Source of the DNA: Curtobacterium sp. MCBD17_035
GTDB lineage: Bacteria > Actinomycetota > Actinomycetes > Actinomycetales > Microbacteriaceae
Reading direction: 5' to 3'
DNA: 64,000 nucleotides
Assembly: GCF_003234815.2 (NCBI RefSeq)
Contig: NZ_CP126279.1
Location: forward strand, 3,100,001-3,164,000
Numbering within the stretch: position 1 is the stretch's first letter; each line of letters begins with the position of its first letter. Of this stretch, positions 15,104-33,031 are shown piece after piece. A program made the position numbers and the translations under genes. Below the pieces are notes generated by a model that did not search any database, was not told the DNA's origin, and saw only the letters and a program-made list of their open reading frames with translations.

Positions 15104-16009
15104 TCAGGGCTCCCGTCGTCCGACACCGAGCGCCTGCTCGGCGTCGATCGGGGGGAGGAGGACGTCCGGCGCGTCGACCGACCGGTCCGTCACGGTCGTC
15201 GGGGACTCGAGGTGCACGGCGCCCGACGGCACGATGCCGACGCCGCCCGCGCGCTCCATCACGCGCCACTGCGCGACGACGTCCTCGCCCGCGTGGCCCG
15301 TCGGGAGTTCCCGCCAGAAGTCGAAGCCGCCCGCGTCGAGGAGCACCGCGCGGTCGTACAGCACGCACGCGCCGACCCACGCGACCCGGTAGGGCACCCA
15401 CCCGCCGTGCGGGACGTCGAGGTCCGCGGCGATGTGGGCGAGGTTCGCGGCGTTGTGGAGCTGCCAGCGGTCGTGGCCGGGCGTGCCGCGCCGGATGACC
15501 TCCGGCACGACCGGCCCGTCCCACCGCTCGAACGTCGTCTGCTGGTGCGGTCGCCGGTCGTCGAGGTACGACAGCCCCTGCACCGCGGACCCGACGAACC
15601 CGCAGCCGAGCTGCCGGATCGCGTCGAGCATGCGGGCGATCGAGTCGCGCTCGAGCCACACGTCGTCGTCGAGGAACAGCACGTACGGCGCGGTCGCGTG
15701 CTCGAGCAGGAACTGCCGGTGCTCGGCGAGCCCGTGCCGCTCGGGGTGCCGCAGGACGAGCGGCTGGCGGCCCTGGGCCTCCAGGACGCGGAGCATCGCC
15801 TGCACGCTCGGGTCGGCGAGCGGCGCACCGTCGACCGACTGGTCGCTGAGGACGAGCCGGAACGTCGGCTCGTCCTGCCCGGCGAGCCCGGCGAGCGTCG
15901 TGGCGAGCTCGGTGACCCGTCCGGCGGTCGGCACGAGCACGTCGACCACGGGCTCCGGTGCCGGCCGGGAGGCCCGTCCCCACTCGCCCGACCAGCGTGC
16001 GGCCGTCAC
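15104..16009 (-). CDS. Family 2 glycosyltransferase (301 aa)
   Basis: GTG 16009 overlaps the hldE stop (GTGA). GT-A features: VDVLVPTAGRVTELATTL at the N-terminus, the DxD motif in VLFLDDDVWLE, and a later acidic segment GHAGEDVVAQWRVME that may hold the catalytic base. No transmembrane helix is present, so it is cytoplasmic. Because it shares an operon with hldE, it may act on a heptose-containing glycan, but its donor sugar is not determined by the sequence. Confidence 0.82.
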   Translation of the reverse strand: MTAARWSGEWGRASRPAPEPVVDVLVPTAGRVTELATTLAGLAGQDEPTFRLVLSDQSVDGAPLADPSVQAMLRVLEAQGRQPLVLRHPERHGLAEHRQFLLEHATAPYVLFLDDDVWLERDSIARMLDAIRQLGCGFVGSAVQGLSYLDDRRPHQQTTFERWDGPVVPEVIRRGTPGHDRWQLHNAANLAHIAADLDVPHGGWVPYRVAWVGACVLYDRAVLLDAGGFDFWRELPTGHAGEDVVAQWRVMERAGGVGIVPSGAVHLESPTTVTDRSVDAPDVLLPPIDAEQALGVGRREP

Positions 16010-17559
16010 GGGGTCGCCTCCGTCGCCGTGGGGGCGTCGTCCGCGTCGGTGACCGTCTCGGCCGCGGCGCGCTCGGCGGCCGCTCGCGCGGACTCGCGGA
16101 TGCGGCGGACGACGTCGGTCGTCGAGTGCTCGGCGACGTAGTCGACCATGACGACCTCACCACCGTAGGCACGGACGACCTCGGTCTCGGTGAGCATCTC
16201 GGGCGAGTAGTCGCCGCCCTTGACGTAGACGTCGGGCTGCAAGCGCTCGATGAGCGGCACGGGGGTGTCGGTCGGGAACACGGTGACCAGGTCGACCGAC
16301 GCGAGGGCCGCGAGGACGCCCGCACGGTCCTCCGCCGTGTTGATCGGCCGCTCCGGCCCCTTGAGCCGGCGGACCGAGTCGTCGTCGTTCACCGCGACGA
16401 CGAGCAGGTCGCCGAGCTCGCGGGCCTGTCGCAGGTACGAGGTGTGACCGCGGTGCACGACGTCGAAGCAGCCGTTCGTGAACACGACGCGGCGGCCCGC
16501 GGCCCGGGCGGCGGCGACGGCGTCGGCCAGGTCGTCGTGGTCGACGATCGTGTCGGCCGGGGCGGAGACCGAGGCGACCAGGGCCTCGGCGGTGCAGATC
16601 GAGGTGCCGGCCTCGCGGACGACGACGTCGGCGGCGGCCTGGGCGAACCGGGCGGCGTCGGCGAGGGGCGTCCCCGTGGCGAGCGCGACGGACACGGCGG
16701 CACAGAACGTGTCGCCGGCGCCGGACGCCTGCTGCTCGGACGCCGGCGTCGCGCGGGTGCGGACCGGGGTGGTGTCAGCGGCGGTGTCGCCGGGCAGCAG
16801 CACGGTGCCGTCCTTGTCGAGCGTGACGATGGCGTTCCGAGCACCGCTCGCGGTGAGGACGGCGTCGCGGAGGCCCTCGACGACCGCGGGGCGTGCGGAC
16901 CCCTGCCCGAGGGAACGGCCGAGGAGCTGCTCGGCCTCGCCACAGTTCGGCGTCACGAGGTCGGGGTGCAGGTCGTGCCAGCGGCCGAGGTCGTGCGCGT
17001 CGACGGCCACGGCGGCCGGACGGTCGCGCAGCACCGCGGGGACCACGGCCTCCGGGGTCGTTCCGAGCCCGTAGTCGCACACCACGACCGCGTCGGCACC
17101 GCGGATGCCGGCGGTCACGGCCCGGGCGAGGGCGATCGTGTCCTGCTCGGTCGGGGGATCGGCGATCTCGTCGACGCGGACGAGGATCCGGTCCCCGCCG
17201 ACGACCCGGGCCTTCGAGGTCGTGACGCCGTGCGAGACGGGCACCAGACCGGACACGTCGACACCGTCGGCCGCCAGCCGGGCGCGGAGGATCCTCCCGG
17301 CCTCGTCGTCACCGATCAGGCCGACCATGCGGACCTCCGCGCCGAGCGCCCGCGCGTTCACGGCGGTGTTCGCGGCACCACCGGGCACGTCGATGACCTC
17401 GGTGACGCGCACGACGGGGGCCGGGGCCTCCCGGCTCACCCGCTCGGCCTCACCGACGCTCCAGCGGTCGAGGATGACGTCCCCGACCACGACGACGAGC
17501 GGTCGCCGGTCCCGGGTGCGGTCCACGACCTCCCGGACGACGCGGAGGTCCCCACTCAC
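16006..17559 (-). CDS. hldE: Bifunctional heptose-7-phosphate kinase / heptose-1-phosphate adenylyltransferase (517 aa)
   Basis: The GTG start at 17559 overlaps the upstream ALDH stop. Residues about 1-330 are a PfkB kinase (VVVGDVILDRW, VPGGAANTAVNARALG, catalytic SGAGDTF). Residues about 370-500 are a nucleotidyltransferase with VVFTNGCFDVVHRGHTSYL (HxGH) and RLKGPERPIN. This is the canonical HldE layout; the enzyme makes ADP-D-glycero-beta-D-manno-heptose from heptose-7-phosphate together with GmhB. All key motifs are intact. The C-terminus carries an extra Ala/Asp-rich tail. A second hldE-like gene lies at 25790-27178. Confidence 0.92.
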   Translation of the reverse strand: MSGDLRVVREVVDRTRDRRPLVVVVGDVILDRWSVGEAERVSREAPAPVVRVTEVIDVPGGAANTAVNARALGAEVRMVGLIGDDEAGRILRARLAADGVDVSGLVPVSHGVTTSKARVVGGDRILVRVDEIADPPTEQDTIALARAVTAGIRGADAVVVCDYGLGTTPEAVVPAVLRDRPAAVAVDAHDLGRWHDLHPDLVTPNCGEAEQLLGRSLGQGSARPAVVEGLRDAVLTASGARNAIVTLDKDGTVLLPGDTAADTTPVRTRATPASEQQASGAGDTFCAAVSVALATGTPLADAARFAQAAADVVVREAGTSICTAEALVASVSAPADTIVDHDDLADAVAAARAAGRRVVFTNGCFDVVHRGHTSYLRQARELGDLLVVAVNDDDSVRRLKGPERPINTAEDRAGVLAALASVDLVTVFPTDTPVPLIERLQPDVYVKGGDYSPEMLTETEVVRAYGGEVVMVDYVAEHSTTDVVRRIRESARAAAERAAAETVTDADDAPTATEATP

Positions 17560-18989
17560 CGGTCGCTCCGGCGCGGCGCCGATTCGAGGTGCACGACCGT
17601 GGTCGTCGTCATCTCGTCGAGCAGGTGCGGGCCGTACCCGAAGCCGGCACCCGACGCACCACGCGGCTGGGCGCTGCCGCCCGGAGCGCCTCCGAACACG
17701 GCGTTCACCTTGACGGTGCCGACCGGGAGCTCGTCGCCGGCGCGGAGCGCGTGCTCCATGTCGTTCGTCAGGACCGTCGCGGCGAGGCCGTAGCGGTCGT
17801 CGGCGGCGAGGCGCAGTGCCTCGTCGAAGTCGTCGACGACCTGCACGGGCGCGATCGGGCCGAAGGTCTCCTCGTGCATGACGAGCATGTCGGGCGTGCA
17901 GTCGACGAGCACCGTCGCGGGGTAGAACGTGCCGACGCCGTCGGGGATGCTGCCGCCTGTGAGGACCCGGGCGCCCTTGGCGACCGCGTCGTCGACGTGC
18001 GACTGGACCACGTTGCGCATCCGCTCGTCGACCAGGGGGCCGTAGCCGTCGGCGTCGGTGGCGGTCTTCGCCTCGGCCTCGGCGACGAGCGCGGTGACGA
18101 ACGCGTCCGCGACCTCGCGGAGGACGTACACGCGCTCGACGCTCGTGCAGATCTGGCCGGTGTTGGCGAACGCGCCGAGCGCGGCCTGACCGGCGGCCCA
18201 CGCCGGGTCGACGTCGGCGTCGACCACGAGCGCGTCGTTCCCGCCGTTCTCGCGGATGACGTGGGCACGGGTGCGCAGGGCCATCTCGGCGAGGACGTCA
18301 CCCGTCGCGGTCGAGCCGACGTGCGCGTAGACGTCGATGCCGGGCTCGGCGAGCAGCGCCTCGCCCGTCGCGGCGTCACCCGTGATGCCGACGAGGACGC
18401 CCTCGGGCAGCGCCTCGGCCAGGATCTCGTTGAGGAGGGCCGCCGTGGCCGGGCAGCGCTCGCTCCCCTTGTGCACGACGGTGTCGCCGGAGACGATCGC
18501 GGCACCGAGGATCCCGCACGCGACGGCGACCGGGTCGTTCCAGGGCGTCAGCGCGAGGACCACGCCGCGGGGGTGCGGCTTGGCGGTGTCCGTCGCGCCG
18601 AACGAGCCCCGCAGGACCTCGCCGCGGTGCAGCGGGCCGAGCTCCGCGTACTGGATCAGCGTGTCGATGCCGGCCTGCACACCGCCGAGGGCGTCGCCGG
18701 GGACCTTGCCGGTCTCGCGGGTGTTGAGCGCCGCGAGTTCCTCGGCACGCTCCTGCAGGTGCAGCGCTGCGGCCTTGAGGACCGCACCACGCTGCCCCGG
18801 CGCCGTGCGGGACCAGGTCGCGAACGCCGTCCGCGCCCGCACGACCGCCTGCTCGATCTCCGCCGGGCTCGCGACCTCGACCCGGGAGGCGGTGCTGCCG
18901 TCGCGCGGGTCCGTCACCTCGATCACGCGGGGCGCGAGGCTGTCCTCGACGGTGGGCTCGGAGGGGGCGATCGCGGTGTCCAGGGCCAA
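17556..18989 (-). CDS. Aldehyde dehydrogenase (477 aa)
   Basis: I chose the TTG at 18989 because it has a strong AGAGGAG site 6-7 bases upstream and gives a normal length; ATGs at 19034 and 19049 would add a poorly conserved leader. Motifs: LTPWNDPVAVAC (cofactor loop), GSTATGD, ENGGND (general base Glu) and FANTGQICTSVERVYV with the nucleophilic Cys. It oxidises an unidentified aldehyde with NAD(P). First gene of an operon with hldE and a glycosyltransferase, joined by a GTGA overlap, so a sugar-derived aldehyde is possible. Confidence 0.88.
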   Translation of the reverse strand: MALDTAIAPSEPTVEDSLAPRVIEVTDPRDGSTASRVEVASPAEIEQAVVRARTAFATWSRTAPGQRGAVLKAAALHLQERAEELAALNTRETGKVPGDALGGVQAGIDTLIQYAELGPLHRGEVLRGSFGATDTAKPHPRGVVLALTPWNDPVAVACGILGAAIVSGDTVVHKGSERCPATAALLNEILAEALPEGVLVGITGDAATGEALLAEPGIDVYAHVGSTATGDVLAEMALRTRAHVIRENGGNDALVVDADVDPAWAAGQAALGAFANTGQICTSVERVYVLREVADAFVTALVAEAEAKTATDADGYGPLVDERMRNVVQSHVDDAVAKGARVLTGGSIPDGVGTFYPATVLVDCTPDMLVMHEETFGPIAPVQVVDDFDEALRLAADDRYGLAATVLTNDMEHALRAGDELPVGTVKVNAVFGGAPGGSAQPRGASGAGFGYGPHLLDEMTTTTVVHLESAPRRSDR

Positions 18990-19277
18990 GGGTGCTCCTC
19001 TGTCAGGGGGACGACCGGCCGAGGGCACGGTCATTGGGCGTTCCGTCATCGTCGACGCGCGCGGGCATCGGTCCGCACGTACCCACACTGCTCCTCCGTC
19101 CCGGGACTGTCCGCGATCGCGGCCTCCCTTCGGCTCGCCTGTCCCCCGACCACGGCCCGCCCTGGAGTCCGCATCCGGCGGGTGCGCGGGCGAGGAGTAC
19201 GGTGGACGAGCGTTCGCGTGAGGTGTGCCGGGAAGACTGGTCGGCGATCCGTCGACCGACCCTCCCGAGGAGATCCC
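18990..19277. other. Divergent intergenic region between ALDH operon and antiporter
   Basis: About 290 bases containing the promoters for both directions. A TACGGT box at 19198-19203 could be a -10 element for the rightward transcript that carries the leader peptide. I see no convincing operator, tRNA or further reading frame. Confidence 0.5.
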
Positions 19278-19313
19278 ATGTCACTCGCCCCACGAGCCGA
19301 GCGCTGCCCGTGA
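19278..19313 (+). CDS. 11-codon leader peptide before the antiporter
   Basis: ATG 19278 has a strong GAGGAG site 5 bases upstream and encodes MSLAPRAERCP. Its TGA overlaps the GTG start of the antiporter (CCGTGA). The antiporter GTG lacks a good ribosome binding site of its own, so translation of the short peptide could deliver ribosomes to it. This is inferred from layout only. Confidence 0.5.
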   Translation: MSLAPRAERCP

Positions 19314-20764: not shown

Positions 20765-20811
20765 GCGGGAGACGACCCGCGCACGGTGCGGCCGCGCGCC
20801 CGTGAGTCCGG

Positions 20812-21714
20812 TCAGCGCTGCGCGCCGGCCGCGGGCGCCAGCGCATCGAGGGCAGCGGTCTGCTCGGCCGTGAGCTCCACCGCGCCCGCCGCCAGGTTCT
20901 CCGCGAGGTGGTCGGCGTTCGCCGTTCCGGGGATCAGCAGCGTGTTCGGCGCGTGCCCGAGCAGCCAGGCCAGGCCGACCTGCGCCGGGGAGGCCCCCAG
21001 CTCGGCCGCGATCCGCTGCACCGCGGGTTCGTCCGTCACCTTCGGCAGGCCGGGGAATCCGCTGCCGAGCGGGAAGAACGGCACCCAGGCGATGTCCTCG
21101 GCGACGCAGAGCGTGAGCATCGCCTCGAACTCGCGGGCGACGAGGGAGTACGCGTTCTGCACGCAGACCACGCCGACCGGGAGCGCCCGCCGGAGGCTCT
21201 CGATCCGCACCGCGCTGAGCCCGATCCCGCCGATCAGCCCCTCGTCGCGCATCGCGGTCATCTCGGCCAGCTGGTCGTCGAGGTCGACGAGGTCCTCGTC
21301 CGGCACGGTGAGACCGGGGCCGATCTCGGGGCGGCGGAGGTTGACGACGTCGAGTCGATCGCGTCCGAGCGTGCGGAGGTTCGCCTCGACCTGCGCACGG
21401 AGTTCCTCCGGTCGCTGCGCCAGCACGAGCGGGATCGGCGCGTCGACGCGGACCGCTCCCACCTTGCTGACGACCGCCACGGCGTCCGAGGAACCGATCG
21501 CCCGACGGATGACGTCGTTCGCGACCCCGTCGCCGTAGAACTCGGCAGTGTCGATGTGGTCCACCCCGAGCTCGACGGCGTGACGGAGGAACGCTGCCCC
21601 GGCCTCCCGGTCGTCGTCGAACCGTTCGAGCGCCATCGCGCCGTACCCGATGCGAGCGATCGCGCGCCCGGCGAGCGTCGCCGTCCCTCCGGGGATCGTC
21701 GTGTGGTCTGCCAT
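20812..21714 (-). CDS. Aldo/keto reductase (300 aa)
   Basis: ATG 21714 with AGGAG 5 bases upstream (the adjacent ATG at 21717 is too close to that box). The AKR barrel is clear: DHIDTAEFYGDG (catalytic Asp and Tyr), VVSKVG (Lys), and LLIPGTANADHLAENL near the end. The usual His of the tetrad is replaced by Arg in VVNLRRPEIG, seen also in some actinobacterial relatives. It would reduce a small carbonyl compound with NADPH. Divergent from a TetR gene with two palindromic operators between them, so it is probably the target of that repressor. Confidence 0.88.
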   Translation of the reverse strand: MADHTTIPGGTATLAGRAIARIGYGAMALERFDDDREAGAAFLRHAVELGVDHIDTAEFYGDGVANDVIRRAIGSSDAVAVVSKVGAVRVDAPIPLVLAQRPEELRAQVEANLRTLGRDRLDVVNLRRPEIGPGLTVPDEDLVDLDDQLAEMTAMRDEGLIGGIGLSAVRIESLRRALPVGVVCVQNAYSLVAREFEAMLTLCVAEDIAWVPFFPLGSGFPGLPKVTDEPAVQRIAAELGASPAQVGLAWLLGHAPNTLLIPGTANADHLAENLAAGAVELTAEQTAALDALAPAAGAQR

Positions 21715-21738
21715 CATGGCTCCTGTCGTCGTCGGAAA

Positions 21739-21752
21739 CGGAGGATCCTCCG
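21739..21752. promoter_or_regulatory. TetR operator 1 (CGGAGGATCCTCCG)
   Basis: A perfect 14-bp palindrome 25 bases upstream of the aldo/keto reductase start. It is identical to operator 2 apart from the central two bases, and both are followed by CT. Confidence 0.75.
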
Positions 21753-21776
21753 CTCTCCGCGACGCTACCACCGATC

Positions 21777-21790
21777 CGGAGGTACCTCCG
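21777..21790. promoter_or_regulatory. TetR operator 2 (CGGAGGTACCTCCG)
   Basis: A perfect 14-bp palindrome ending two bases before the TTG start of the TetR gene, with its centre 38 bp from that of operator 1. Binding here would block translation initiation or a nearby promoter, giving autoregulation. Confidence 0.75.
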
Positions 21791-21792
21791 CT

Positions 21793-22365: not shown

Positions 22366-22380
22366 CCGCGCGGCGCCACT

Positions 22381-22564: not shown

Positions 22565-23746
22565 GTGTTCCCGATCGGTCAAGCACAGCCCGCGTTCGAG
22601 GACGTCCGCGAGATCGCGGTCCTGCGCGGCGGCGGACTCGGGGACCTGCTGTTCGCCATGCCGGCGATCGACGCGCTCGCCGCCGCGTACCCGGAGGCCC
22701 GCATCACCCTCCTCGGCACGCCCATGGCCGCCGCGCTGCTCGCCGACCGGCCCTCGTCGATCGACGCCGTCGAGGTGCTCCCCGTGGCGCCGGGTGTCCG
22801 CGAGGTCGCCGGGCAGGAGTCCGACCCCGCCGAGGTCGACGCGTTCACCGCCCGACTGCACGGGCGCTTCGACCTCGCCGTCCAGGTGCACGGCGGCGGC
22901 CGGAACTCCAATCCGTTCCTGCTCCGCCTCGGCGCACGACACACCGTCGGCACCGCGACCGAGGACGCCGAGGTCCTCGAGCGCTGGGTCCGCTACGTCT
23001 ACTACCAGCACGAGGTGCTCCGGGCGCTCGAGGTCGCCGGGCTCGCCGGTGCCGCACCCGTCGTGCTCGATCCCGTCGTCCACGTGTCCGACGACGAGCG
23101 CGCGGCCGCCGTCGCCCGGATCGAGGACGCGATCGGCGCACCGCTCGCCGGGCGCCGGGTCGTCGCGGTCCACCCCGGCGCGACGGACCCCCGGCGCCGT
23201 TGGCCCGCGGAACGCTTCGCCGCGGTGGCGGCCGCCCGCATGGCCCAGGGCGACGTCGTCATCGTCGTCGGCGACGAGTCGGACCGGGAGGCGGCGATCA
23301 CCATCGCGCGCTCGGCCACCGACATCGCGGGTCCGGACAGCCCCGGGCAGATCGTCGACCTCGCGGGGGTGCTCGGCCTCGGGGAGCTCCCGGGGACGCT
23401 CGCGATCGCGGACGTCATGGTCGCCGACGACTCGGGGCCGCGGCACCTCGCGGTCGCGGTCGGCACCCGCACGGTCGGGATCTTCTGGTTCGGCAACGTC
23501 GTCAACGCGGCGCCGTTCGACCGGGGGCGCCACCGGGTCGAGATGAGCTTCACGACGCACTGCCCCGTGTGCGGCGTCGACGTCACCCAGGTCGGCTGGA
23601 CCGCGGAGCGCTGCGAGCACGACCCGTCGTTCGTGGCCGAGGTCGGGGTCGAGGTGGTGCTCGCCGACGTCGCGGACCTGCTGACGACCGCCCCGGCCGC
23701 CGAGCCCGTGGTCAGCGGCGCGGCGCGAGCAACCAGGGGCGGATGA
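22565..23746 (+). CDS. Glycosyltransferase family 9 (heptosyltransferase-like), 393 aa
   Basis: GTG 22565 with GAGGAGG upstream. The GT9 N-terminal signature RGGGLGDLLFAMPAI (GDxL) and the C-terminal donor-binding region AVHPGATDPRRRWPAERFAAV and VADDSGPRHLAVAVGTRTVGIF match the ADP-heptose:LPS heptosyltransferase family. Four cysteines in CPVCGVDVTQ ... ERCEHD near the C-terminus could bind a metal. Cytoplasmic. Given gmhA, hldE and gmhB nearby it is a candidate ADP-heptose-using enzyme. The 3' end overlaps the convergent next gene by 35 bases. Confidence 0.85.
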   Translation: MFPIGQAQPAFEDVREIAVLRGGGLGDLLFAMPAIDALAAAYPEARITLLGTPMAAALLADRPSSIDAVEVLPVAPGVREVAGQESDPAEVDAFTARLHGRFDLAVQVHGGGRNSNPFLLRLGARHTVGTATEDAEVLERWVRYVYYQHEVLRALEVAGLAGAAPVVLDPVVHVSDDERAAAVARIEDAIGAPLAGRRVVAVHPGATDPRRRWPAERFAAVAAARMAQGDVVIVVGDESDREAAITIARSATDIAGPDSPGQIVDLAGVLGLGELPGTLAIADVMVADDSGPRHLAVAVGTRTVGIFWFGNVVNAAPFDRGRHRVEMSFTTHCPVCGVDVTQVGWTAERCEHDPSFVAEVGVEVVLADVADLLTTAPAAEPVVSGAARATRGG

Positions 23747-24987: not shown

Positions 24988-25692
24988 CTACGGCCAGCTG
25001 GGCTCCTCGGCCGGCATGATCGCGAGCTCGCGGATCTCGCACCCGGCGGGCTGGCTCAGGGCGAAGATGATCGCGTTCGCGACGTACTCCGGCTCGATGA
25101 GCTTGGCGTCCGGCCCCGGCTTGTACTGCTCGGTGCGGCCCTCGAAGAACGCGGTGCGCATGCCCGCGGGGATGATGTTCGTCACGCCGACGACGCCACG
25201 GGTCTCGGCCGCGAGCGCCTGGGAGAACCCGCGGACGCCGAACTTCGACGCGGAGTACGCGGTGCCGTCGCCGACGCCCTTGAGCGCCAGCGAGGACGAG
25301 ATGATGACGACGCGGCCGTTCGAGGCCTCGAGCGCGGGCAGGGCAGCGCGCACGGTCGCGGCGGTGCCGAGCAGGTTGACGCCGACGATGCGCTCCCAGT
25401 CGCCGGACGAGATGCCGCCGATCGGGGCCGGCTTGTCGATGCCCGCGGCGGTGACGACGGCGTCGAGGCCACCGTGACGCTCGGCGGCGTCACGCACGGC
25501 CTGCTCGGTGGCGGCGGTGTCGGTGACGTCGACGGCCACGCTGTCCCACTCGCTCGGGACCGCGTCGGTCTTCAGGTCGAGCACGATCGGGGTGCCGCCC
25601 GCCTCGGCGACGGCGGCGGCGACGGCGGCACCGAGGCCGCTCGCACCGCCGGTGACGAGCACGCGGCCGATGGGCGTGGTGGGGATGGGCAT
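24988..25692 (-). CDS. Short-chain dehydrogenase/reductase (234 aa)
   Basis: ATG 25692 behind GAAAGGAAC. Classical SDR: TGGASGLG cofactor motif, VTAAG, Ser in IISSSLAL and YSASK catalytic pair. It is a classical short SDR, not the extended type expected of the ADP-heptose epimerase HldD. It is the last gene of the heptose operon direction, 97 bases after the second hldE, with its own ribosome binding site; whether it modifies the sugar is unknown. Confidence 0.83.
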   Translation of the reverse strand: MPIPTTPIGRVLVTGGASGLGAAVAAAVAEAGGTPIVLDLKTDAVPSEWDSVAVDVTDTAATEQAVRDAAERHGGLDAVVTAAGIDKPAPIGGISSGDWERIVGVNLLGTAATVRAALPALEASNGRVVIISSSLALKGVGDGTAYSASKFGVRGFSQALAAETRGVVGVTNIIPAGMRTAFFEGRTEQYKPGPDAKLIEPEYVANAIIFALSQPAGCEIRELAIMPAEEPSWP

Positions 25693-25789: not shown

Positions 25790-27178
25790 CTACCCGACGC
25801 GTTCGAGGGCGGCAGCGAGCCGCGTGGTGGAGCGCCCCGGGTGGAACGGCACGGTGACGACGCGGCCACCCCACTCGGCGAGGGTCCGGGACTCCGGGAG
25901 CTCGTCGGCGGAGTAGTCGCCGCCCTTCGCCCAGACGTCGGGCTGGAAGCGGCGGAGGGCCTCGTCGGGCGTCGACTCGTCGAACACGATGACGGCGTCG
26001 ACGCAGTCGAGCGCGAGGAGGAGCTCGACGCGGTCCTCCTGCGTCATGATCGGCCGGTCGGGGCCCTTGAGCCCGCGGACGGAGCTGTCCGAGTTGAGGC
26101 AGACCACGAGGCAGTCGCCCAGCGCTCGGGCGGCTGACAGGGTGCGGGCGTGGCCGGCGTGGAGCAGGTCGAAGCAGCCACCGGTCGCGACCACGGTGCC
26201 GCCCGCGGCGCGGACGTCGTGGGCGACCCGGATGGCGTCCCGGTCACTGCCCGGCACGGTGACCGGTGCGGGAGGCGCGAGGAGCGACGCGACGCCGCCC
26301 GCGGCCAGGTAGGCGGAGGCGTCGGCGACACCCGCCGCGACGGCGTCCTCGGTCGAGGCGCCCTGCGCGAGCGCGACGGCGACGCCGGCCGCGAGCCGAT
26401 CACCGGCGCCACAGGGGTCGCCCGCGGTGACGGAGGGCGCGGGGACGAAGCGGGAGTCGCCGGCGTCGGTGCGGAGCAACGCGCCCTTCTCGCCCATCGT
26501 GACGGCGACCGCGTGGGCGGACCAGTCGGCGACGAGCTGCTCGCCGGCGGCCGTGGCGAAGGGCACGCCGGAGCCGGTCGCGCCGGAGAAGCCCCGGGCC
26601 TCCGCGGCGTTCGGGGTGGCGACCGCGATGCCCGGGACCGGCTGCGCGCCCTTCGGGTGCGGGTCCCACACGACGGGGGTGGTCTCGGCGACGCGGGTCA
26701 GGGCCTCCCGGAGCGCGGGAGCGGCGGCGAGGCCACGGCCGTAGTCGGCGACGACGATCGCGTCGGCGCCCTCGAGCGCGGCGGTCATGTCCGCGGTCAC
26801 ATCCGGCACGGGCGGCGTCGCGCAGGCCTCGTCGATGCGGACGAGCGCGTGGTCGCCGACACGCACGCGGGTCTTGACGGGGGTCGCGACGCCGGAGTCC
26901 CCGGCGACGACGCGGACGCCGGGCATGCCGTCCCGGAGCTCGGCGCCCCGGTCGTCCTGGCCGAGGACGGTGACGAGCGTGACGTCGTGGCCGTCGCGCG
27001 CGAGCATGGTCGCGACGAGCCCGGCACCACCGGCGCGGCGGACCTCGTCCTGCACGTCGAGCACGGGCACGGGCGCGTCGGGGCTGAGGCGCTCCGAGGT
27101 CCCGGTGACGTCGACGTCGAGCAGGGTGTCGCCGACGACGACGATCCGCGTGCGGGTGGTGTCCGTGCGGGCGTTCAT
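25790..27178 (-). CDS. hldE: Second HldE-type bifunctional kinase/adenylyltransferase (462 aa)
   Basis: ATG 27178 overlaps the gmhA stop (ATGA). The N-terminal PfkB domain starts RIVVVGDTLLDVDV; the usual GGAANVA segment reads GGAGLVA and the catalytic motif reads CGAGDRL (Asp kept, Thr/Ser replaced by Arg). The C-terminal nucleotidyltransferase is canonical: ATGGCFDLLHAGHARTL (HxGH) and GLKGPDRPIM. It is 55 residues shorter than the first HldE. The adenylyltransferase half looks fully active, while the kinase half is divergent and may have a different sugar or reduced activity. Directly downstream of gmhA, so it is probably the pathway copy for this cluster. Confidence 0.88.
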   Translation of the reverse strand: MNARTDTTRTRIVVVGDTLLDVDVTGTSERLSPDAPVPVLDVQDEVRRAGGAGLVATMLARDGHDVTLVTVLGQDDRGAELRDGMPGVRVVAGDSGVATPVKTRVRVGDHALVRIDEACATPPVPDVTADMTAALEGADAIVVADYGRGLAAAPALREALTRVAETTPVVWDPHPKGAQPVPGIAVATPNAAEARGFSGATGSGVPFATAAGEQLVADWSAHAVAVTMGEKGALLRTDAGDSRFVPAPSVTAGDPCGAGDRLAAGVAVALAQGASTEDAVAAGVADASAYLAAGGVASLLAPPAPVTVPGSDRDAIRVAHDVRAAGGTVVATGGCFDLLHAGHARTLSAARALGDCLVVCLNSDSSVRGLKGPDRPIMTQEDRVELLLALDCVDAVIVFDESTPDEALRRFQPDVWAKGGDYSADELPESRTLAEWGGRVVTVPFHPGRSTTRLAAALERVG

Positions 27179-27813
27179 CGGCGGCCTCCCCGGAGTCCCT
27201 TGAGCGCGGGCTCCATGGCCCGGCAGAGTGCGTGCACGAGGACGAGCTGGGCCTCCTGCACGTTGGCGGAGGGCCCGTCGATGCAGATCGCGTCGTCGAC
27301 GACCTCGGCGAGGGGGTTCGGGCGTGATCCGGTCATCGCCCAGGTGCGGACGCCGATGGAGCGGGCGGCACGGGCTGCGTTGAGCAGGTTCTCGCTCTTG
27401 CCGCTCGTCGAGAGCAGCACGAGGACGTCGCCGGCGCGGGCGTGCGCGTGCACCTGGCGGGCGAAGACGTGTTCGTAGCCGTAGTCGTTCCCGATCGCGG
27501 TGACCGCGGAGGACTCGGCGTGCAACGAGATCGCACTGAAGGCGGGACGGTCCCCGTCGAACCGGCCGACGAGCTCGCTCGTCAGGTGCTGCGCCTCCGC
27601 CGCGGAGCCGCCGTTGCCGGCCGCGAGGAGCCGCTGGCCCCGGCCGAGCCGCGACGCGAGGTCGTCGGCCCACGCCGCGATGTGGTCGCCGTGCTCGGCG
27701 AGGGACGCGATGACCGGGACGGACGCGGCGATGTGGTCGAGGACGAGCGACGCGCTCGAGGCTGGCTCGTCCGACGTCGGCCGAGCGGTGGTGGCGGGCA
27801 GGTCGATGGTCAT
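27175..27813 (-). CDS. gmhA: SIS-domain sedoheptulose-7-phosphate isomerase, GmhA-like (212 aa)
   Basis: ATG 27813 overlaps the preceding stop (ATGA). SIS fold: [22 protein letters not shown] (the GNGGSA and HL-ELxGRF segments typical of GmhA), [37 protein letters not shown] and [13 protein letters not shown]. GmhA converts sedoheptulose-7-phosphate to D-glycero-D-manno-heptose-7-phosphate, the first step to ADP-heptose. It lies between a GT4 gene and hldE in a strictly overlapping operon. Confidence 0.9.
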
Positions 27814-29120
27814 CGGAGGGTCCTTCCGGCGGTGCCCAGGGGGGCGGGGTCGAGCGTGGGGACGGCACCGGCACGGCGACGTCCGGGACGGGTGGAACGG
27901 CGACCGGTGATGCGGTCGTACACCCGCTCGGAGTCGGTGGCGATGCGCGCCCACGAGTAGCGGGACTCGACCCGCTCGCGGCCGGCGCGGCCGAACGCCA
28001 CGCGACGGTCGGGGTCGTCGAGGATCGCGGCGACGGCCTCGGCGACCGCGGCGGCGTCCCGCGGCGGCACGTGCAGGCCGGTGGCGTCCTCGACGACGGT
28101 GTCGATGAGGCCGCCGACGCTCGACGCGACGACCGGGACGCCGCAGGCCATGGCCTCGAGCGGCACGATCCCGAACGGCTCGTACCACGGGGCGCACACG
28201 ACGACGTCGGCACTCCGGAGGACGGTCGGGATCTCGCGCTGGGACAGCTGGCCGCGGAACGTCACGTGGTCCCGCACGCCGAGCCGGGTGGCCAGGGCGT
28301 CGAGACGCTGGTACTCCGGGTCGTCCACGAGGTCGGCCCCGGCGGTCCCCGCCCCACCGACGATGACGAGTTCGACGTCGCGGCCCGCGTGCACGAGGCG
28401 GGCGAGCGCGTCGATCGTCGTGCCGACGCCCTTGCGCTGCACGAGCCGGGAGGCCGTGACGACCCGGTGCCGTCGGCTGCGGACCTCGGTCAGGCCGTCC
28501 GGCGTGAACGCGTCGACGTCGACCCCGCAGGGCACGACCGAGATGCTGCGGTTCGGGATGCCGAGGGCCTTGAGCTCGAACGCCTCGTCGGAGCACGTCG
28601 CGATGACCTGGTCGGCGCGGCGCCCGACCTCCGGTTCGAGCCACTCGCGCTCGTTCGGGCTGGTGTCGGCCGAGCCCTGGTGGCGGCGCTTCACGACGCC
28701 GAGCGCGTGGTACGTGTGCACGACGGGGATGCGCGGTCCGTCGCTGTGGGCACCGAGCTGCTGTGCTGCGTCGAGGGCCGCGAGCCCGGACATCCAGAAG
28801 TGGCTGTGCACGATGTCGGGGCGGTCGACGGTCCACGCGGCGACGAGGAACGAGGCGAACTGCCCCATGTACTGGAGCAGGTCGTCCTTCGGCAGGCGTT
28901 CGGCCGGCCCGGCGTCGACGTGCACGACGTCCACACCGGGGCGGAGCGACACCCGGCGCGGCAGGGTCGCGTCGTCGCGCCGCGTGTAGACCGTCACCTG
29001 GTGCCCGCGGTCGGCGAGCGCCCCGGACAGGGCTGCGACGTGGACGTTCTGGCCGCCGGCGTCGACGCCCCCGAGCGTGGCCAGCGGGCTGGCGTGCTCC
29101 GAGACCATGGCGATCTTCAT
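27810..29120 (-). CDS. Family 4 glycosyltransferase (436 aa)
   Basis: ATG 29120 overlaps the preceding stop. The GT-B layout is clear: the N-terminal loop [19 protein letters not shown], acceptor-side [12 protein letters not shown] and HTYHALG, then a donor domain with [11 protein letters not shown] and the E-x7-E motif in [20 protein letters not shown]. It resembles MshA/sucrose-phosphate-synthase-type GT4 enzymes. It probably adds a sugar to the glycan made by this cluster; donor and acceptor are not known. The C-terminus has a basic Arg-rich tail. Confidence 0.87.
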
Positions 29121-30184
29121 GCGCGGTTCCTTCCGTCGGTGCCATCGGCGACCGGGGCTGCGCCGACCAGGTCGGTGAGCGGTGCCGGGGCCGGTGCGGA
29201 TCGGTGGTGTGCTGCGAGGTGACGCTCCTGCACGCCGTCGAGGAGGTCGTCCCAGTCGCCGAGGAATCGCTCCAGGGAGTGGCGCGCGAGCACGGCCTCC
29301 CGGGCGACGAGGCCGCGGCGACGCGCCTCGTCGGGGTCGGCGACGAGGTGTCGGGCGGTGGCGACGAGGTCTTCGACGTCGGTCGAGATCGCGCCAGCCT
29401 CGGCGGGGACCGCACGGGCCGCCTCGGTCGTGCCGAGGACGAGCACCGGCATCGCCATGTGCATCGCCTCGAGCAGGGACAGCCCGAGCGAGGTCCAGCG
29501 GTTGAGGTGCAGGTAGGCGCGGCGCTCGGCGAGCTGCGTGTGCATCGGGTCGGGCTTGACGTCCCCCATCACGCCGAGCCGGTCCGGACCGAGTCCGAGG
29601 GCGTCCGGGAGCTGGTCGGTGCCCATCCCGAACGCGTCGACGGGAGCGACCGCCGCGAACCGCGGCACGAGGTCGGTCCCGGCGACGCGCGTCCGGCGGA
29701 CGGGCTCGTTGACCACGACCCCGAACCGCTCGAGCGTGCCGGTGTACCGCGGACCGGGGTCGACGACGCCGTGTTCGATCACCGTCGTGGCGGTCGTGCC
29801 GCAGTCCCACATGAGGGCGTTGAAGTGCGTGACGTGCGCGATGAGGACGTCGTCCCGGTCGCGCAGCGGATGCAGGGACGCGGGGACGTCGACCCGCGGG
29901 GCGTTGTGCTCGACGAAGACCACCGGGACGTCGCGGCCGAGACGGGCACCGAGCAGGCGTTCGGCCTCGGCGAACTCTTCGGTGCGCTGCAGGACGACGA
30001 CGTCGACGTCGGCGTCGCGCACGGCCTCCGGCGCGATCTCGACGACGTTCTCGGGCCAGAGCCGGTCGGCGCGACCGAGGCCCCAGGCGTCACGGGCGGG
30101 GGTGGTGGGGACGAGGTAGTCGTGCTGACCCCGGACGAACGCGTCCATCCAGCCGCCGTGCACGTGCCACACCAGGATCCGCAC
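29117..30184 (-). CDS. GT-B glycosyltransferase, GT4-like (355 aa)
   Basis: GTG 30184 with AGGAGG 7 bases upstream; first gene of the operon. It starts [12 protein letters not shown] like actinobacterial cell-surface glycosyltransferases, and the donor-domain motif is [22 protein letters not shown], a GT4-like segment with the conserved Glu. The N-terminal half is divergent. No membrane helix. The stop overlaps the next glycosyltransferase start (ATGA). The sugar is unknown, but co-transcription with gmhA and hldE points to a heptose-containing product. Confidence 0.78.
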
Positions 30185-30207
30185 GCCATACCTCCTGCTC
30201 GTCCGTC

Positions 30208-30241
30208 CCCGGCTGAGGGAACGCCGGGAATTCGGACGATA
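30208..30241 (-). promoter_or_regulatory. Putative promoter and 5' hairpin of the gmhA-hldE operon
   Basis: On the minus strand an extended -10 (GCGTATCGT, box 30241-30236) precedes the first glycosyltransferase by about 50 bases. A CCCGGC/GCCGGG hairpin (30208-30228) would lie at the very 5' end of the transcript or end the upstream GT9 transcript. No clear -35 element is seen. Confidence 0.35.
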
Positions 30242-30281
30242 CGCACTCCTCCTGCTGCTCGCCTCCCGGTGGGACTGCTTC

Positions 30282-31340
30282 TCAGGAGTGTTGTACCCCG
30301 GACGTGCCCCGTTCCCAGCCAGCGAGGCGCGCGCACGCGGCGACCACGGCCTCCGGGTCGACGGAGCGGAGGCACGGGTGTCCCGGCACCGGACACTCGC
30401 GGGCGCGGCTCAGTCGGCAGGGCGCCTGCTGGTCGCCGAGCAGTTCCACGGGCACGCCGTAGGGCGCCCACCGGACCGCGGGCACCACCGGCGAGAACAG
30501 ACTGACGATCGGGACCCCGACGGCCGCCGCGAGGTGGGCCGGACCCGTGTTCCCGACGACGACGACCTCGGCGCCCGCGAGCACCGACGCCAGTGCCGCC
30601 GGGCTCGTCCGGCCCCCGAGGTCGATGCCCGAGGCCCCTGCGGCGGCGGCCGTGAGGTCACGCTCGCCCGGGCTGCCGGTCACGACCACGGTGTGTCCGA
30701 GGGCGGCGAGCCGCTCCACGAGCGCGGCGTGCAGGTCGACCGGCCACGACCGCGCCGGGACGCTCGCGCCGGGGTGGACCACGACGTACGGTCCGAGCCC
30801 GTCGAGCTCCGGGGGCAGGTCCGCCGGGTCGTGGACGACCGCGAGCCGACCGTCGTCCCCGTCCGGCAGCGCGTACCCCGCCGCTCGGGCGATCTCCAGC
30901 GCACGCTCGGGTTCGGGCTGGTCCTCGGGAAAGTCCTCGCCGGGCCGGAGTCGCACGTCGAGCAGTGCCCCCGCGTGGTCGACCGACGCCCCGGTGATCC
31001 TCGCGACCCCCGCCAGGCGGAGGAGGAGCGCGACCGGGAGGGGCGACTGGTGGAACGAGGTGAGGACGATGGCCTCGTCGGGCCGGGCCTCCTGGACGAT
31101 CGCGTCGAACTCGGCGAGCATCGCGGCGTCGACCGGCCGGTCGGTCTCGGTGATCCAGGGACAGGCCCAGACCCGGAGCTCGTCCACGCCCGGCAGGAGC
31201 CGCCCCGCGGGAGCCCCCTGCGGGCCGCAGAGCATCCACACCTCGGTGTCCGGAGCCGCCGCGACGGCCCGGACCGCGGGTCCGCCGACGAGGACGTCCC
31301 CGAAGCTGTCGAGCCGGACGACGAGGACCCGGCGCGTCAC
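30282..31340 (-). CDS. Glycosyltransferase family 9 (heptosyltransferase-like), 352 aa
   Basis: GTG 31340 overlaps the gmhB stop (GTGA). GT9 signature VRLDSFGDVLVGGPAVRAV at the N-terminus and the donor-site segments VVHPGASVPARSWPVDLHAALVERL and VVVGNTGPAHLAAAVGVPIVSLFSPVVP. A C-terminal Cys-rich segment (CRLSRARECPVPGHPCLRSV) may be structural or metal-binding. Its direct coupling to gmhB, the phosphatase of the ADP-heptose pathway, makes heptose transfer the best guess for its activity. Confidence 0.87.
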   Translation of the reverse strand: MTRRVLVVRLDSFGDVLVGGPAVRAVAAAPDTEVWMLCGPQGAPAGRLLPGVDELRVWACPWITETDRPVDAAMLAEFDAIVQEARPDEAIVLTSFHQSPLPVALLLRLAGVARITGASVDHAGALLDVRLRPGEDFPEDQPEPERALEIARAAGYALPDGDDGRLAVVHDPADLPPELDGLGPYVVVHPGASVPARSWPVDLHAALVERLAALGHTVVVTGSPGERDLTAAAAGASGIDLGGRTSPAALASVLAGAEVVVVGNTGPAHLAAAVGVPIVSLFSPVVPAVRWAPYGVPVELLGDQQAPCRLSRARECPVPGHPCLRSVDPEAVVAACARLAGWERGTSGVQHS

Positions 31341-31960
31341 CGCCCGGTCCCGGCGCGTTCCGCCGCCGCGCGTTCCGCCCCGGCGCGCTCCGCCCGTGCG
31401 GCGAGGTCACCCTGGCGGCCGTGGCGCAGCGAGTGGAGCACGAGCGCGACCGCGTCGACGAGCGACTCCGTGGCGACGTCCGCCTCGTCGATCTCCTCGG
31501 CCCGGGTGACCTCGGTGGGAACGAGGATGCCGGCCGCTCCCGCGTTGCGCGCCGCGCCCATGTCCGCGCCGATGTCCCCGATGACGACGCACTCCTCGGG
31601 CGCGACGCCGAGGCGTTCCGCGGCGTTGACGACCATCCCCGGACGGGGCTTCCGGCAGTCGCAGTCGTCGTCCGGACCGTGCGGGCAGACCTCCCACACG
31701 TCGAACGGACCGATGAGCTCGTCCACCCGGGCGTTCACCGCGTCGACCTGGTCGCGGGTGGCGGTCCCCCGGGCGATCGCCGACTGGTTCGTCACGACAC
31801 CGACCGCGACCCCCGCGGCACGGAGCGCCTGGACCGCGCGGCGGGCCCCCGGCACCGGCTCCACGAGGTCCGGGTCCGTGTTGTAGGGCACGTCGACCAC
31901 GAGGGTGCCGTCGCGGTCGAAGAGGACAGCGCGAGGGGGGCGGTGCGTGCGCAGGCTCAT
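31337..31960 (-). CDS. gmhB: D-glycero-D-manno-heptose-1,7-bisphosphate 7-phosphatase (207 aa)
   Basis: HAD phosphatase of the histidinol-phosphatase/GmhB type: FDRDGTLVVDVPYNTDP (motif I with double Asp), GVVTNQSAIARG, the zinc-binding loop CPHGPDDDCDCRKPRPG (Cys-x-His and Cys-x-Cys) and VIGDIGADMGAARNAG. This loop is the hallmark of the family. It removes the 7-phosphate between the kinase and adenylyltransferase steps of HldE. The C-terminus is an Ala/Arg/Glu repeat tail (AERAGAERAAAERAG), probably disordered or helical. Confidence 0.9.
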   Translation of the reverse strand: MSLRTHRPPRAVLFDRDGTLVVDVPYNTDPDLVEPVPGARRAVQALRAAGVAVGVVTNQSAIARGTATRDQVDAVNARVDELIGPFDVWEVCPHGPDDDCDCRKPRPGMVVNAAERLGVAPEECVVIGDIGADMGAARNAGAAGILVPTEVTRAEEIDEADVATESLVDAVALVLHSLRHGRQGDLAARAERAGAERAAAERAGTGR

Positions 31961-32050
31961 GCACCGATTCGTACCCGGTCCGGCCGGTCCCCGTCACGTG
32001 CCCGGCGCGTCGAGCGAGGCGGGGCGCGGGCGGGTGCCCGTCACGCCCGG

Positions 32051-32056
32051 TAGCGT
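32051..32056 (+). promoter_or_regulatory. -10 box of a leaderless promoter (TAGCGT)
   Basis: TAGCGT lies 6 bases before the GTG start of the GT9 gene at 32063, with no ribosome binding site between. This spacing is typical of leaderless actinobacterial transcripts, where transcription starts at the start codon. Confidence 0.55.
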
Positions 32057-32062
32057 CGACCC

Positions 32063-33031
32063 GTGCCCGCACTCCCCGCCCTGCCGCCGTCGGACGGCCG
32101 CCCCGAGCTCGTCGTGCTCCGCGCGATCAAGCTCGGTGACATCCTCATCGCCGTGCCCGCGCTGCACGCACTGCGCCGCGCGTACCCGGAGCACCGCATG
32201 ACGCTCGCGACCACCGCGTGGCTCGCCCCGATCGTCGAGCTGCTGCCGGGGGTCGACGTGCACCTGGCGCAGCAGGGCCTCGACCACGACATGCCGATCG
32301 AACCCGGCACCGTCGACGTGGCGGTGAACCTGCACGGCTCCGGCGGGGAGTCCCGCGCGATCATCGCGCACCTGGAGGCCCGGCACACCATCAAGCACGC
32401 CGCGCACGGTGAGGACGGGCTGCCCTGGCTCGACGGCATGCACGAGCGGGAGCGGTGGATCCGCCTCGTCCGCGCCTTCGGGATCGAGGGCGACCCGGAC
32501 GAGGTCGACATCCGCGTGCCGGACCTCGAGCCCGCGGTCCGGGACGCCGCCGTCGTGCACGTCGGCGCGTTCTACGGCGCGCGGCACTGGCCGGTCGAGC
32601 GGTTCGCCGCGGTCGCCCGTGCGCTCGCGGCCCAGGGACTCGACGTCGTCGTGACGGGAGGCGCGGACGACGTCGACCGCGCCACCGCCGTCGCCGAGGG
32701 GGCCGGCCTGGCACCGGCCGCCGTGCTGGCGGGCCGGCTCGACCTGCAGGAGTTCGCCGCGGTCATCGCCGCCGCGCACGTCGTCGTGACCGTCGACACG
32801 GGCGCCGCGCACCTGGCGTCGGCGTACCACGTGCCGAGCGTCGTGCTGTTCGGCCCGGCGCCGCCGGAGGAGTGGGGCCCGCCGGCCTCTGGTCCGCACG
32901 TCGTGCTGACGGACGCGAGCGTCCGCCGGGGTGACGTGTTCGCGACGGAGCCCGACCCGGCCCTCCTGGCGGTCACGGTCGACGACGTCCTGGAGGCGGT
33001 GGCGGAGGTCACGGCGCGCGTCGCGTCCTGA
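32063..33031 (+). CDS. Glycosyltransferase family 9 (heptosyltransferase-like), 322 aa
   Basis: GTG 32063, probably leaderless. GT9 signature VVLRAIKLGDILIAVPALHALRR; donor region VVHVGAFYGARHWPVERFAAV and VVTVDTGAAHLASAYHVPSVVLFGPAPPEEWGP. Third GT9 protein in 10 kb, divergent from gmhB across a 102-base gap. It is likely another transferase of the same surface glycan. Donor specificity is inferred from context. Confidence 0.86.
   Translation: MPALPALPPSDGRPELVVLRAIKLGDILIAVPALHALRRAYPEHRMTLATTAWLAPIVELLPGVDVHLAQQGLDHDMPIEPGTVDVAVNLHGSGGESRAIIAHLEARHTIKHAAHGEDGLPWLDGMHERERWIRLVRAFGIEGDPDEVDIRVPDLEPAVRDAAVVHVGAFYGARHWPVERFAAVARALAAQGLDVVVTGGADDVDRATAVAEGAGLAPAAVLAGRLDLQEFAAVIAAAHVVVTVDTGAAHLASAYHVPSVVLFGPAPPEEWGPPASGPHVVLTDASVRRGDVFATEPDPALLAVTVDDVLEAVAEVTARVAS

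What the first reader, a model, noticed from the sequence alone, without database searches (positions are those of the whole stretch)
15104..33031. ADP-heptose pathway and three GT9 transferases in a Gram-positive-type genome
gmhA (27175), gmhB (31337) and two hldE genes (16006, 25790) cover sedoheptulose-7-phosphate to ADP-D-glycero-beta-D-manno-heptose. Three GT9 heptosyltransferase-like proteins (22565, 30282, 32063) and three further glycosyltransferases are interleaved and mostly translationally coupled. Heptose is the LPS core sugar of Gram-negatives, while everything else here points to an actinobacterium without LPS. The likely product is a heptose-containing surface glycan, and the intermediates are known innate-immune signals in animals.
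Basis: partly seen in the sequence, partly recalled or inferred. Interest (0 to 1): 0.75.

Follow-up and report, generated by a model that had tools for sequence, protein, structure and literature searches.

The report
Actinobacterial heptose-glycoside locus, two HldE types
A Gram-positive bacterium of the Curtobacterium kind carries a conserved twelve-gene set for making and attaching seven-carbon sugars best known from Gram-negative LPS, with two distinct versions of the key activating enzyme; what it builds is still unidentified.

Summary
All named genes lie at the stated coordinates in a Curtobacterium-type actinobacterium without LpxC. All three GT9 and both HldE genes found in the 3.46-Mb genome sit in this locus.

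The locus is widespread. In 75 of 80 named relatives the genes present keep this order; 30 have all twelve. GT9 and HldE occur in the same 68 of 398 family genomes. There are two modules: A (GmhB-GT9b-GT4b-GT4-GmhA-HldE2-SDR-GT9c), found across Actinomycetes, elsewhere often with a carbamoyltransferase; and B (GT9a-ALDH-HldE1-GT2).

The HldE genes are two old clades, not a recent duplication. In HldE2 the kinase-motif Asn is Leu (124 of 124), TNG becomes TGG (125 of 125), and it mostly carries the published STTR5 arginine linked to broad NTP use. HldE1 is canonical at the first two sites.

NDP-heptose synthesis in actinobacteria is already in print. I found no paper describing this two-enzyme locus or its product, but the library held is partial. 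No export, priming or polymerising gene lies among the twelve, so 'surface glycan' is unproven; a heptoside assembled in the cytoplasm fits as well.

The parts
15104..15949 (-). GT2 glycosyltransferase (module B)
   Evidence: PF00535 54 bits; in 35 of 80 named loci
16006..17559 (-). HldE1: canonical-type heptose-7-P kinase + nucleotidyltransferase (module B)
   Evidence: PfkB + CTP_transf_like, TIGR02199 over cut-off; clade with support 99; Asn64 and Asn362 (TNG) kept, His478 at the STTR5 arginine position
17556..18989 (-). Aldehyde dehydrogenase, overlaps HldE1 by 4 bases (module B)
   Evidence: PF00171 366 bits; in 53 of 80 named loci
22565..23746 (+). GT9a heptosyltransferase-like (module B)
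   Evidence: PF01075 81 bits; own clade, support 99; in 63 of 80 named loci
24988..25692 (-). Classical short-chain dehydrogenase, conserved beside HldE2 (module A)
   Evidence: PF00106 133 bits; in 78 of 80 named loci
25790..27178 (-). HldE2: divergent kinase + nucleotidyltransferase, STTR5 motif FHPGRSTT (module A)
   Evidence: PfkB + CTP_transf_like; clade with support 100; Leu54, Gly333, Arg449; AlphaFold model nearest to HldA 4e8y
27175..27813 (-). GmhA sedoheptulose-7-P isomerase
   Evidence: SIS_2 82 bits, gmhA model 148.5 bits; aligns with solved GmhA structures; fused to HldE2 in five relatives
27810..29120 (-). GT4 glycosyltransferase, nearest to a sucrose-phosphate synthase and MshA
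   Evidence: PF00534/PF13439; 6kih and 3c4q by sequence
29117..30184 (-). GT4b, GT-B-fold glycosyltransferase
   Evidence: PF13524 27.6 bits against 25; model pLDDT 91 matches PimB' and BshA folds
30282..31340 (-). GT9b heptosyltransferase-like
   Evidence: PF01075 79 bits; matches WaaC structures; own clade
31337..31960 (-). GmhB heptose-1,7-bisphosphate phosphatase
   Evidence: HAD-IIIA over cut-off, GmhB models below cut-off; aligns with solved GmhB incl. the CPH...CDCRKP stretch
32063..33031 (+). GT9c heptosyltransferase-like
   Evidence: PF01075 92 bits; matches 3tov and WaaF; own clade
14832..15026 (-). DUF2795 small protein, frequent neighbour of GT2, membership uncertain
   Evidence: PF11387 81 bits; neighbour in a good number but not all of the loci laid out

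Best explanation
This is a conserved actinobacterial NDP-heptose and heptosyltransferase locus of two co-inherited modules. Module A: GmhA isomerises sedoheptulose-7-P, the HldE2 kinase makes the 1,7-bisphosphate, GmhB removes the 7-phosphate, and the HldE2 nucleotidyltransferase makes an NDP-heptose (with the STTR5 motif, probably CDP or UDP as well as ADP). GT9b and GT9c add heptose, and GT4 and GT4b add other sugars, to a small or lipid acceptor in the cytoplasm. Module B (HldE1, GT9a, GT2, ALDH) supplies a second, canonical ADP-heptose route and adds a further heptose. The product is a heptose-containing oligosaccharide glycoside or glycolipid, not LPS. Shown: gene families, conserved order, co-occurrence, two clades with fixed residue differences, no export gene among the twelve. 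Inferred: substrates, nucleotide preference, division of labour between the GT9s, and the product.
For: Gene families. All GT9 and HldE matches of the genome lie in this locus. GT9 (E up to 1e-10) and HldE (E up to 1e-20) occur in the same 68 of 398 family genomes, none holding only one; in the class sample of 394, HldE is in 97, GT9 in 106, both in 93. Gene order: of 80 named loci, the best of at least 582, 75 are collinear for the genes present; GmhA and HldE2 in 80, HldE1 in 68. HldE1 and HldE2 are separate clades (99 and 100), seven Gram-negative HldE falling on the HldE1 side. Their distances correlate over 80 loci (r 0.913, no shuffle of 500 as high), and over 76 loci after near-duplicates are dropped (r 0.904, none of 500), so they travel together. 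Fixed differences: kinase-motif Asn in HldE1 93 of 93 and outgroups 7 of 7, Leu in HldE2 124 of 124; TNG Asn in 94 of 94 and 7 of 7, Gly in HldE2 125 of 125; STTR5 Arg in 116 of 125 HldE2 and 29 of 93 HldE1, gaps left out (the same picture on 89 HldE1 and 118 HldE2 that differ by over 5%). GmhA is fused to HldE2 in L196, L199, L210, L227 and Streptomyces sp. FR1, tying GmhA to HldE2. GT9a, b and c are three clades. No LpxC; no multi-span protein among the twelve.
Against: Most enzymes are below NCBI's equivalog cut-offs, so exact substrates are unproven. The STTR5 split is not clean: 29 of 93 HldE1 also have Arg, 9 of 125 HldE2 do not, and 36 of 125 HldE2 have Ala for the motif's Gly. Five family genomes (G008, G068, G125, G273, G364) have HldE1 only and no GmhA in the locus; each has a GmhA-like SIS protein elsewhere, beside genes that look catabolic (neighbour sizes in five loci, first residues read in one of them, L273; not scanned), so the HldE1 substrate there is open. 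In the class sample 13 genomes have GT9 without HldE and 4 have HldE without GT9. Three class-level loci (L190, L197, L200) with HldE2 show neither a separate nor a fused GmhA by my gene calls. No acceptor is known.
Confidence: 0.62

Rival explanations
1. One reading: the locus makes a heptose-containing cell-surface polysaccharide (capsule or wall glycopolymer) that is exported by machinery encoded elsewhere in the genome.
For: Six glycosyltransferases (three GT9, two GT4, one GT2) in one locus; class-wide conservation suits an envelope component. Export genes elsewhere in the genome were not searched for.
Against: No priming transferase, flippase, polymerase or ABC exporter among the twelve genes, and no multi-span protein; GT4 and GT4b are nearest to enzymes that glycosylate small or lipid acceptors such as hexose phosphate, inositol, malate or phosphatidylinositol mannoside (acceptors recalled). 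Patchy presence, 68 of 398 family genomes.
Confidence: 0.25
2. The locus makes a specialised metabolite carrying heptose, like septacidin or hygromycin B in Streptomyces.
For: Heptose in an actinobacterial natural product, septacidin, is in print (PMC11573728 and PMC11461863, text read). Carbamoyltransferase and SDR/ALDH genes recall tailoring enzymes of antibiotic clusters.
Against: HldE relatives in 26 of 85 family genera and 48 of 138 class genera, in the same gene neighbourhood in the loci laid out; I saw no gene family outside the twelve (and the carbamoyltransferase and epimerase) recurring beside it, but most neighbours were not scanned.
Confidence: 0.1
3. HldE1 and HldE2 kinases act on different sugar phosphates, so the cell activates two different heptoses (or a heptose and another sugar) with interchangeable nucleotidyltransferases.
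For: Asn to Leu in the PfkB sugar-site motif is fixed in HldE2. In four lineages one nucleotidyltransferase domain is lost while both kinases stay: G323 (HldE1), G053, G179 and G599 (HldE2); in the 173 loci compared no kinase was lost with its nucleotidyltransferase kept.
Against: Only four events, and a stop or frameshift always removes the C-terminal domain first, so the bias may be mechanical. GmhA fused to HldE2 suggests HldE2 takes the ordinary heptose-7-P.
Confidence: 0.3
4. The enzymes act on sugars other than heptose; the names are inherited from homology only.
For: Scores below curated equivalog cut-offs.
Against: Isomerase, kinase, phosphatase, nucleotidyltransferase and GT9 genes occur together; I recall no other pathway that uses this set.
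Confidence: 0.07

Closest known systems
HldE / GmhA / GmhB ADP-heptose pathway of Gram-negative LPS (with WaaC/WaaF GT9 transferases)
   Same: All four enzyme families by homology and three GT9 proteins with the GD and [DN]-[ST]-G-x-x-H stretches
   Different: No LpxC, no HldD over cut-off, two HldE types, extra SDR, ALDH and GT4 genes; GT9s far below the LPS heptosyltransferase equivalog cut-offs
Tridomain NDP-heptose synthetases of actinobacteria (Tang et al. 2022, title seen only; the tridomain order described in PMC11573728)
   Same: GmhA fused to the HldE2 type occurs in L196, L199, L210, L227 and Streptomyces sp. FR1; HldE2 of the window is in the same clade
   Different: In the window the isomerase is a separate gene overlapping HldE2 by 4 bases, and a second HldE type is present
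STTR5 nucleotidyltransferases that also make CDP- and UDP-heptose (Tang et al. 2024, known here through the commentaries PMC11573728 and PMC11461863)
   Same: Window HldE2 has FHPGRSTT, an exact match to (F/L)XXGRSTT (sequence; counts)
   Different: Window HldE1 has YVAEHSTT, no match; activity untested
Septacidin and hygromycin B heptose biosynthesis in Streptomyces (Tang et al. 2018, title seen only)
   Same: Sedoheptulose-7-phosphate-derived heptose in an actinobacterium
   Different: No nucleoside or aminoglycoside scaffold gene among the twelve; present in many genera

Membership tests
HldE (bifunctional heptose-7-P kinase / heptose-1-P nucleotidyltransferase) | PfkB kinase fused to cytidylyltransferase-like domain | tested here: met
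   Both proteins
HldE (bifunctional heptose-7-P kinase / heptose-1-P nucleotidyltransferase) | GAGD catalytic stretch of the kinase and HxGH of the nucleotidyltransferase (motif roles recalled) | tested here: met
   HldE1 GAGDTF/HRGH, HldE2 GAGDRL/HAGH (sequences; relatives)
HldE (bifunctional heptose-7-P kinase / heptose-1-P nucleotidyltransferase) | Conserved Asn in the GGxxN sugar-site motif (role recalled) | tested here: inconclusive
   Met by HldE1 (Asn64), not met by HldE2 (Leu54; Leu in 124 of 124 of its clade)
HldE (bifunctional heptose-7-P kinase / heptose-1-P nucleotidyltransferase) | NCBIfam NF008454 equivalog cut-off 521 bits | tested here: not met
   368.5 and 269.1 bits; hence called HldE-type
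GT9 heptosyltransferases | PF01075 above gathering score | tested here: met
   81.2, 78.8, 92.5 bits against 22
LPS heptosyltransferase I/II/III | Curated equivalog cut-offs (TIGR02193, TIGR02195, TIGR02201) | tested here: not met
   Best 94.2 bits against 185.3
LPS core locus | Lipid A synthesis in the same genome (LpxC) | tested here: not met
   No PF03331 match in a 99.86% complete genome; rings in 4 of 14 controls
Tridomain NDP-heptose synthetase | Isomerase, kinase and nucleotidyltransferase in one chain | tested here: not met
   Separate gmhA and hldE2 in the window; fusions only in relatives
STTR5 heptose nucleotidyltransferase | (F/L)XXGRSTT motif | tested here: met
   HldE2 FHPGRSTT; HldE1 does not have it
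STTR5 heptose nucleotidyltransferase | Use of CTP and UTP as well as ATP | not testable with these tools
   Needs an enzyme assay

The most novel reading that the evidence does not exclude
A widespread, previously unassigned actinobacterial heptose glycoconjugate built from two separately activated heptose donors: an NTP-promiscuous HldE2 (CDP-/UDP-heptose) feeding GT9b/GT9c and a canonical ADP-type HldE1 feeding GT9a. In Microbacteriaceae and their Micrococcaceae-like relatives the second heptose module takes the place of the carbamoyl decoration that other actinomycete lineages keep. This would give CDP- or UDP-heptose its first physiological role.
Probability: 0.25. Interest if true: 0.8.

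Novelty: new variant of a known kind. Interest (0 to 1): 0.52.

Why it matters
Heptose nucleotides trigger ALPK1 in vertebrates, and authors of that work write that the roles of heptose in many producers, and of CDP- and UDP-heptose, remain unknown and that genes beside the heptose enzymes may give hints (PMC11573728, text read). This locus gives such neighbours: a fixed set of transferases, an SDR, an ALDH, two HldE clades and, in other lineages, a carbamoyltransferase, in culturable genera such as Arthrobacter where gene removal should be feasible. It also gives simple residue markers that tell the two HldE types apart.

Tried and rejected
Recent duplication of HldE: rejected, the two copies are separate clades and Gram-negative HldE falls on the HldE1 side (unrooted, quick tree). 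Gram-negative contamination or a freshly acquired LPS locus: rejected by named relatives and class-wide clades and absence of LpxC. HldE1 acting without any GmhA in some genomes: not shown; GmhA-like SIS proteins, none over the curated cut-off, were found in 15 of 15 genomes asked, outside the locus in the HldE1-only ones. A hidden HldD: nine sub-cut-off SDR matches only. Domain loss as proof of two substrates: kept as a weak hint only. The promoter and terminator scan gave nothing above shuffles. Rfam and tRNA scans of the window were empty. Gene calling failed on some named loci (blank or near-blank rows), so counts of named loci come from tblastn. My script had counted L184 as collinear because it skipped genes on the other strand; the recount gives 75 of 80, not 76. 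Class-level carbamoyltransferase and epimerase counts used 16 of the 39 class-level loci of over 10 kb fetched. One search asked 24 genomes of my choice: the 17 without a hit are the test; the 7 with a hit had been chosen because one search had already shown the gene there, so they are a positive control, not a count.
Full report
WHAT IS THERE. The conserved locus is GT2 (15104-15949), HldE1 (16006-17559), ALDH (17556-18989), GT9a (22565-23746, + strand), SDR (24988-25692), HldE2 (25790-27178), GmhA (27175-27813), GT4 (27810-29120), GT4b (29117-30184), GT9b (30282-31340), GmhB (31337-31960) and GT9c (32063-33031, + strand). Five junctions overlap by 4 bases: HldE1/ALDH, HldE2/GmhA, GmhA/GT4, GT4/GT4b and GT9b/GmhB. 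The 3.6 kb between ALDH and GT9a hold an Na/H exchanger, an aldo-keto reductase and a TetR regulator, and two small genes lie between GT9a and SDR. I saw no such genes at these places in the other Curtobacterium loci laid out, so they look like insertions.

HOST. The window is bases 3100001-3164000 of contig 1 of a 3.46-Mb, 99.86% complete genome. The closest named HldE2 genes are from Curtobacterium (76-81% identity), family Microbacteriaceae. LpxC is not found. No gene passes the HldD model. The three GT9 and two HldE matches of the genome are all in this locus.

CONSERVATION. In 398 family genomes, drawn evenly from a larger group, an HldE relative (E up to 1e-20) is found in 68, from 26 of 85 genera. 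GT9 (E up to 1e-10) is found in 68, and these are the same 68, none with one alone. Genomes are related, so the p-value printed there overstates the case; the exact match of the two lists does not depend on it. In 394 class genomes HldE is in 97 (48 of 138 genera), GT9 in 106, both in 93; 4 have HldE only and 13 GT9 only. I laid out 40 loci of 37 family genomes. One of them (L064) gave no gene calls; tblastn later found HldE2 there. Among 80 named loci, the best of at least 582 found with HldE2, GmhA and HldE2 are in 80; GmhB, GT9b, GT4, GT4b and SDR in 78; HldE1 in 68; GT9a in 63; GT9c in 63; ALDH in 53; GT2 in 35. In 75 of the 80 the genes present are collinear and 30 have all twelve; in four exceptions GT2 has moved to the far end, and in L184 GT4b and GT9c lie otherwise. 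Some of the 80 are cut by contig ends. The named genera include Curtobacterium, Rathayibacter, Clavibacter, Arthrobacter, Paenarthrobacter, Leucobacter, Brevibacterium and Aeromicrobium.

TWO MODULES. Of the 39 class-level loci that I laid out, 29 show HldE2 only, 6 both types and 4 HldE1 only; three of the four were picked for HldE1 and their genomes carry HldE2 elsewhere. In these lineages module A is often joined by a NodU-like carbamoyltransferase (12 of 16 loci looked at) and an NAD-epimerase of the dTDP-glucose-dehydratase/UDP-xylose-synthase kind (13 of 16) (two proteins of each scanned, all below their curated cut-offs). A named example is Streptomyces fungicidicus plasmid p1, whose record names the carbamoyltransferase. 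The carbamoyltransferase is absent from 17 of 17 carriers asked from the window's family and from f2, a same-order family whose HldE genes group with Arthrobacter. It was found again in the 7 positive controls, at 67-75% identity to the query in the six that are not its own genome. Five family genomes, G008, G068, G125, G273 and G364, have HldE1 but no HldE2.

TWO HldE TYPES. A 98-row tree (quick IQ-TREE, SH-aLRT only, unrooted) makes HldE1 (32 rows) and HldE2 (54 rows) one side of a branch each, supports 99 and 100, and places seven Gram-negative HldE (Pseudomonadota and Planctomycetota) with HldE1. On an alignment of 228 different sequences the kinase-motif Asn is Asn in 93 of 93 HldE1 and 7 of 7 outgroups but Leu in 124 of 124 HldE2 (one gap in each type not counted); the TNG Asn of the nucleotidyltransferase is Asn in 94 of 94 and 7 of 7 but Gly in 125 of 125. 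With sequences under 5% apart dropped the counts are 88 of 88, 117 of 117, 89 of 89 and 118 of 118. Rows were assigned to types by whole-length profile score; the profiles include these sites, so the assignment is not wholly independent of them. The published STTR5 arginine, a marker of CTP/UTP use (PMC11573728 and PMC11461863; the article text of both was shown to me, part of the reference lists not), is present in 116 of 125 HldE2 and in 29 of 93 HldE1, one gap left out. In the window HldE2 has the exact motif and HldE1 does not. Pairwise distances of the two proteins correlate at 0.913 over 80 loci and 0.904 over 76 without near-duplicates, with no shuffle of 500 as high in either: they are inherited together. 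GmhA is fused to HldE2 in four class-level loci and in Streptomyces sp. FR1, the tridomain form known in print. Three class-level loci with HldE2 show no GmhA, fused or separate, in my calls (L190, L197, L200).

A HINT ON DIVISION OF LABOUR. Where both types exist, four lineages lost one nucleotidyltransferase domain and kept both kinases: G323 lost that of HldE1; G053, G179 and G599 lost that of HldE2. In the 173 loci compared none lost a kinase and kept its nucleotidyltransferase. This fits interchangeable nucleotidyltransferases and non-redundant kinases, but the number is small and truncation naturally takes the C-terminal domain.

TRANSFERASES. The three GT9 are three clades, each with support 99, in a 71-row tree, and match WaaC, WaaF or 3tov by sequence. 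All three have the GD stretch near the N-terminus in the window. GT4 is nearest to a sucrose-phosphate synthase and to MshA. GT4b has no sequence match in the PDB at E below 0.1, but its model (pLDDT 91) matches GT4 enzymes such as PimB' and BshA at TM about 0.65. HldE2's model (pLDDT 85) is nearest to HldA of Burkholderia cenocepacia. No member of the locus looks like a multi-span membrane protein; ALDH, GT9b and GT9c each have one stretch just over the hydropathy threshold, against 7 and 8 in two transporter controls.

WHAT IT DOES. The best reading is cytoplasmic assembly of a heptose-containing oligosaccharide on a small or lipid acceptor with donors from two HldE types. The SDR beside HldE2 could act as a 6-epimerase in place of HldD, and the ALDH could oxidise a sugar carbonyl; both are guesses from position only.

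WHAT IS KNOWN. [quoted passage not shown] neither full text was held. Searches of the held open-access library for heptose with Curtobacterium (no paper), NDP-heptose with actinobacteria (3 papers), heptose with carbamoyltransferase, Streptomyces, glycosyltransferase and gene cluster (1 paper), actinobacteria with heptosyltransferase, heptose and cell wall (7 papers), septacidin with heptose (12 papers, 10 listed) and a wider search (166 papers, 20 listed) gave, from titles and abstract starts, no paper that describes this locus or its product. Most subscription journals are not in that library, so absence there is weak evidence.

Noticed in passing
window 53413-59816: Zinc-type regulon: CobW_C protein, a ribosomal protein L36, a 51-aa His-rich small protein without Pfam match, a Fur-family regulator and a ZnuA-type binding protein, with an ArsR-like regulator and ABC transporter genes judged by look only.
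   Followed up: partly
window 34535-35569 and 40094-42640: Ku-like and LigD-like genes (judged by look, not scanned) near each other, as in bacterial end joining.
   Followed up: no
window 1200-5585: 1461-aa RHS-repeat protein with lower GC at codon position 1 than its neighbours.
   Followed up: no
L074 (G132) and L078 (G185): Another HldE-GmhA pair in two family genomes that falls with the Gram-negative outgroups in the tree, so probably acquired separately.
   Followed up: partly
L272-L277: GmhA-like SIS proteins in what look like catabolic neighbourhoods (ROK-type kinase, LacI-type regulator and a large GH38-like protein read from first residues in L273 and in part in L277; the rest by size only; not scanned) in genomes without GmhA in the heptose locus.
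   Followed up: partly
L198, L192, L202, L194, L286: A NodU-like carbamoyltransferase, 67-75% identical across families, beside module A in many lineages outside the window's family: a possible 'carbamoyl-heptose' decoration.
   Followed up: partly
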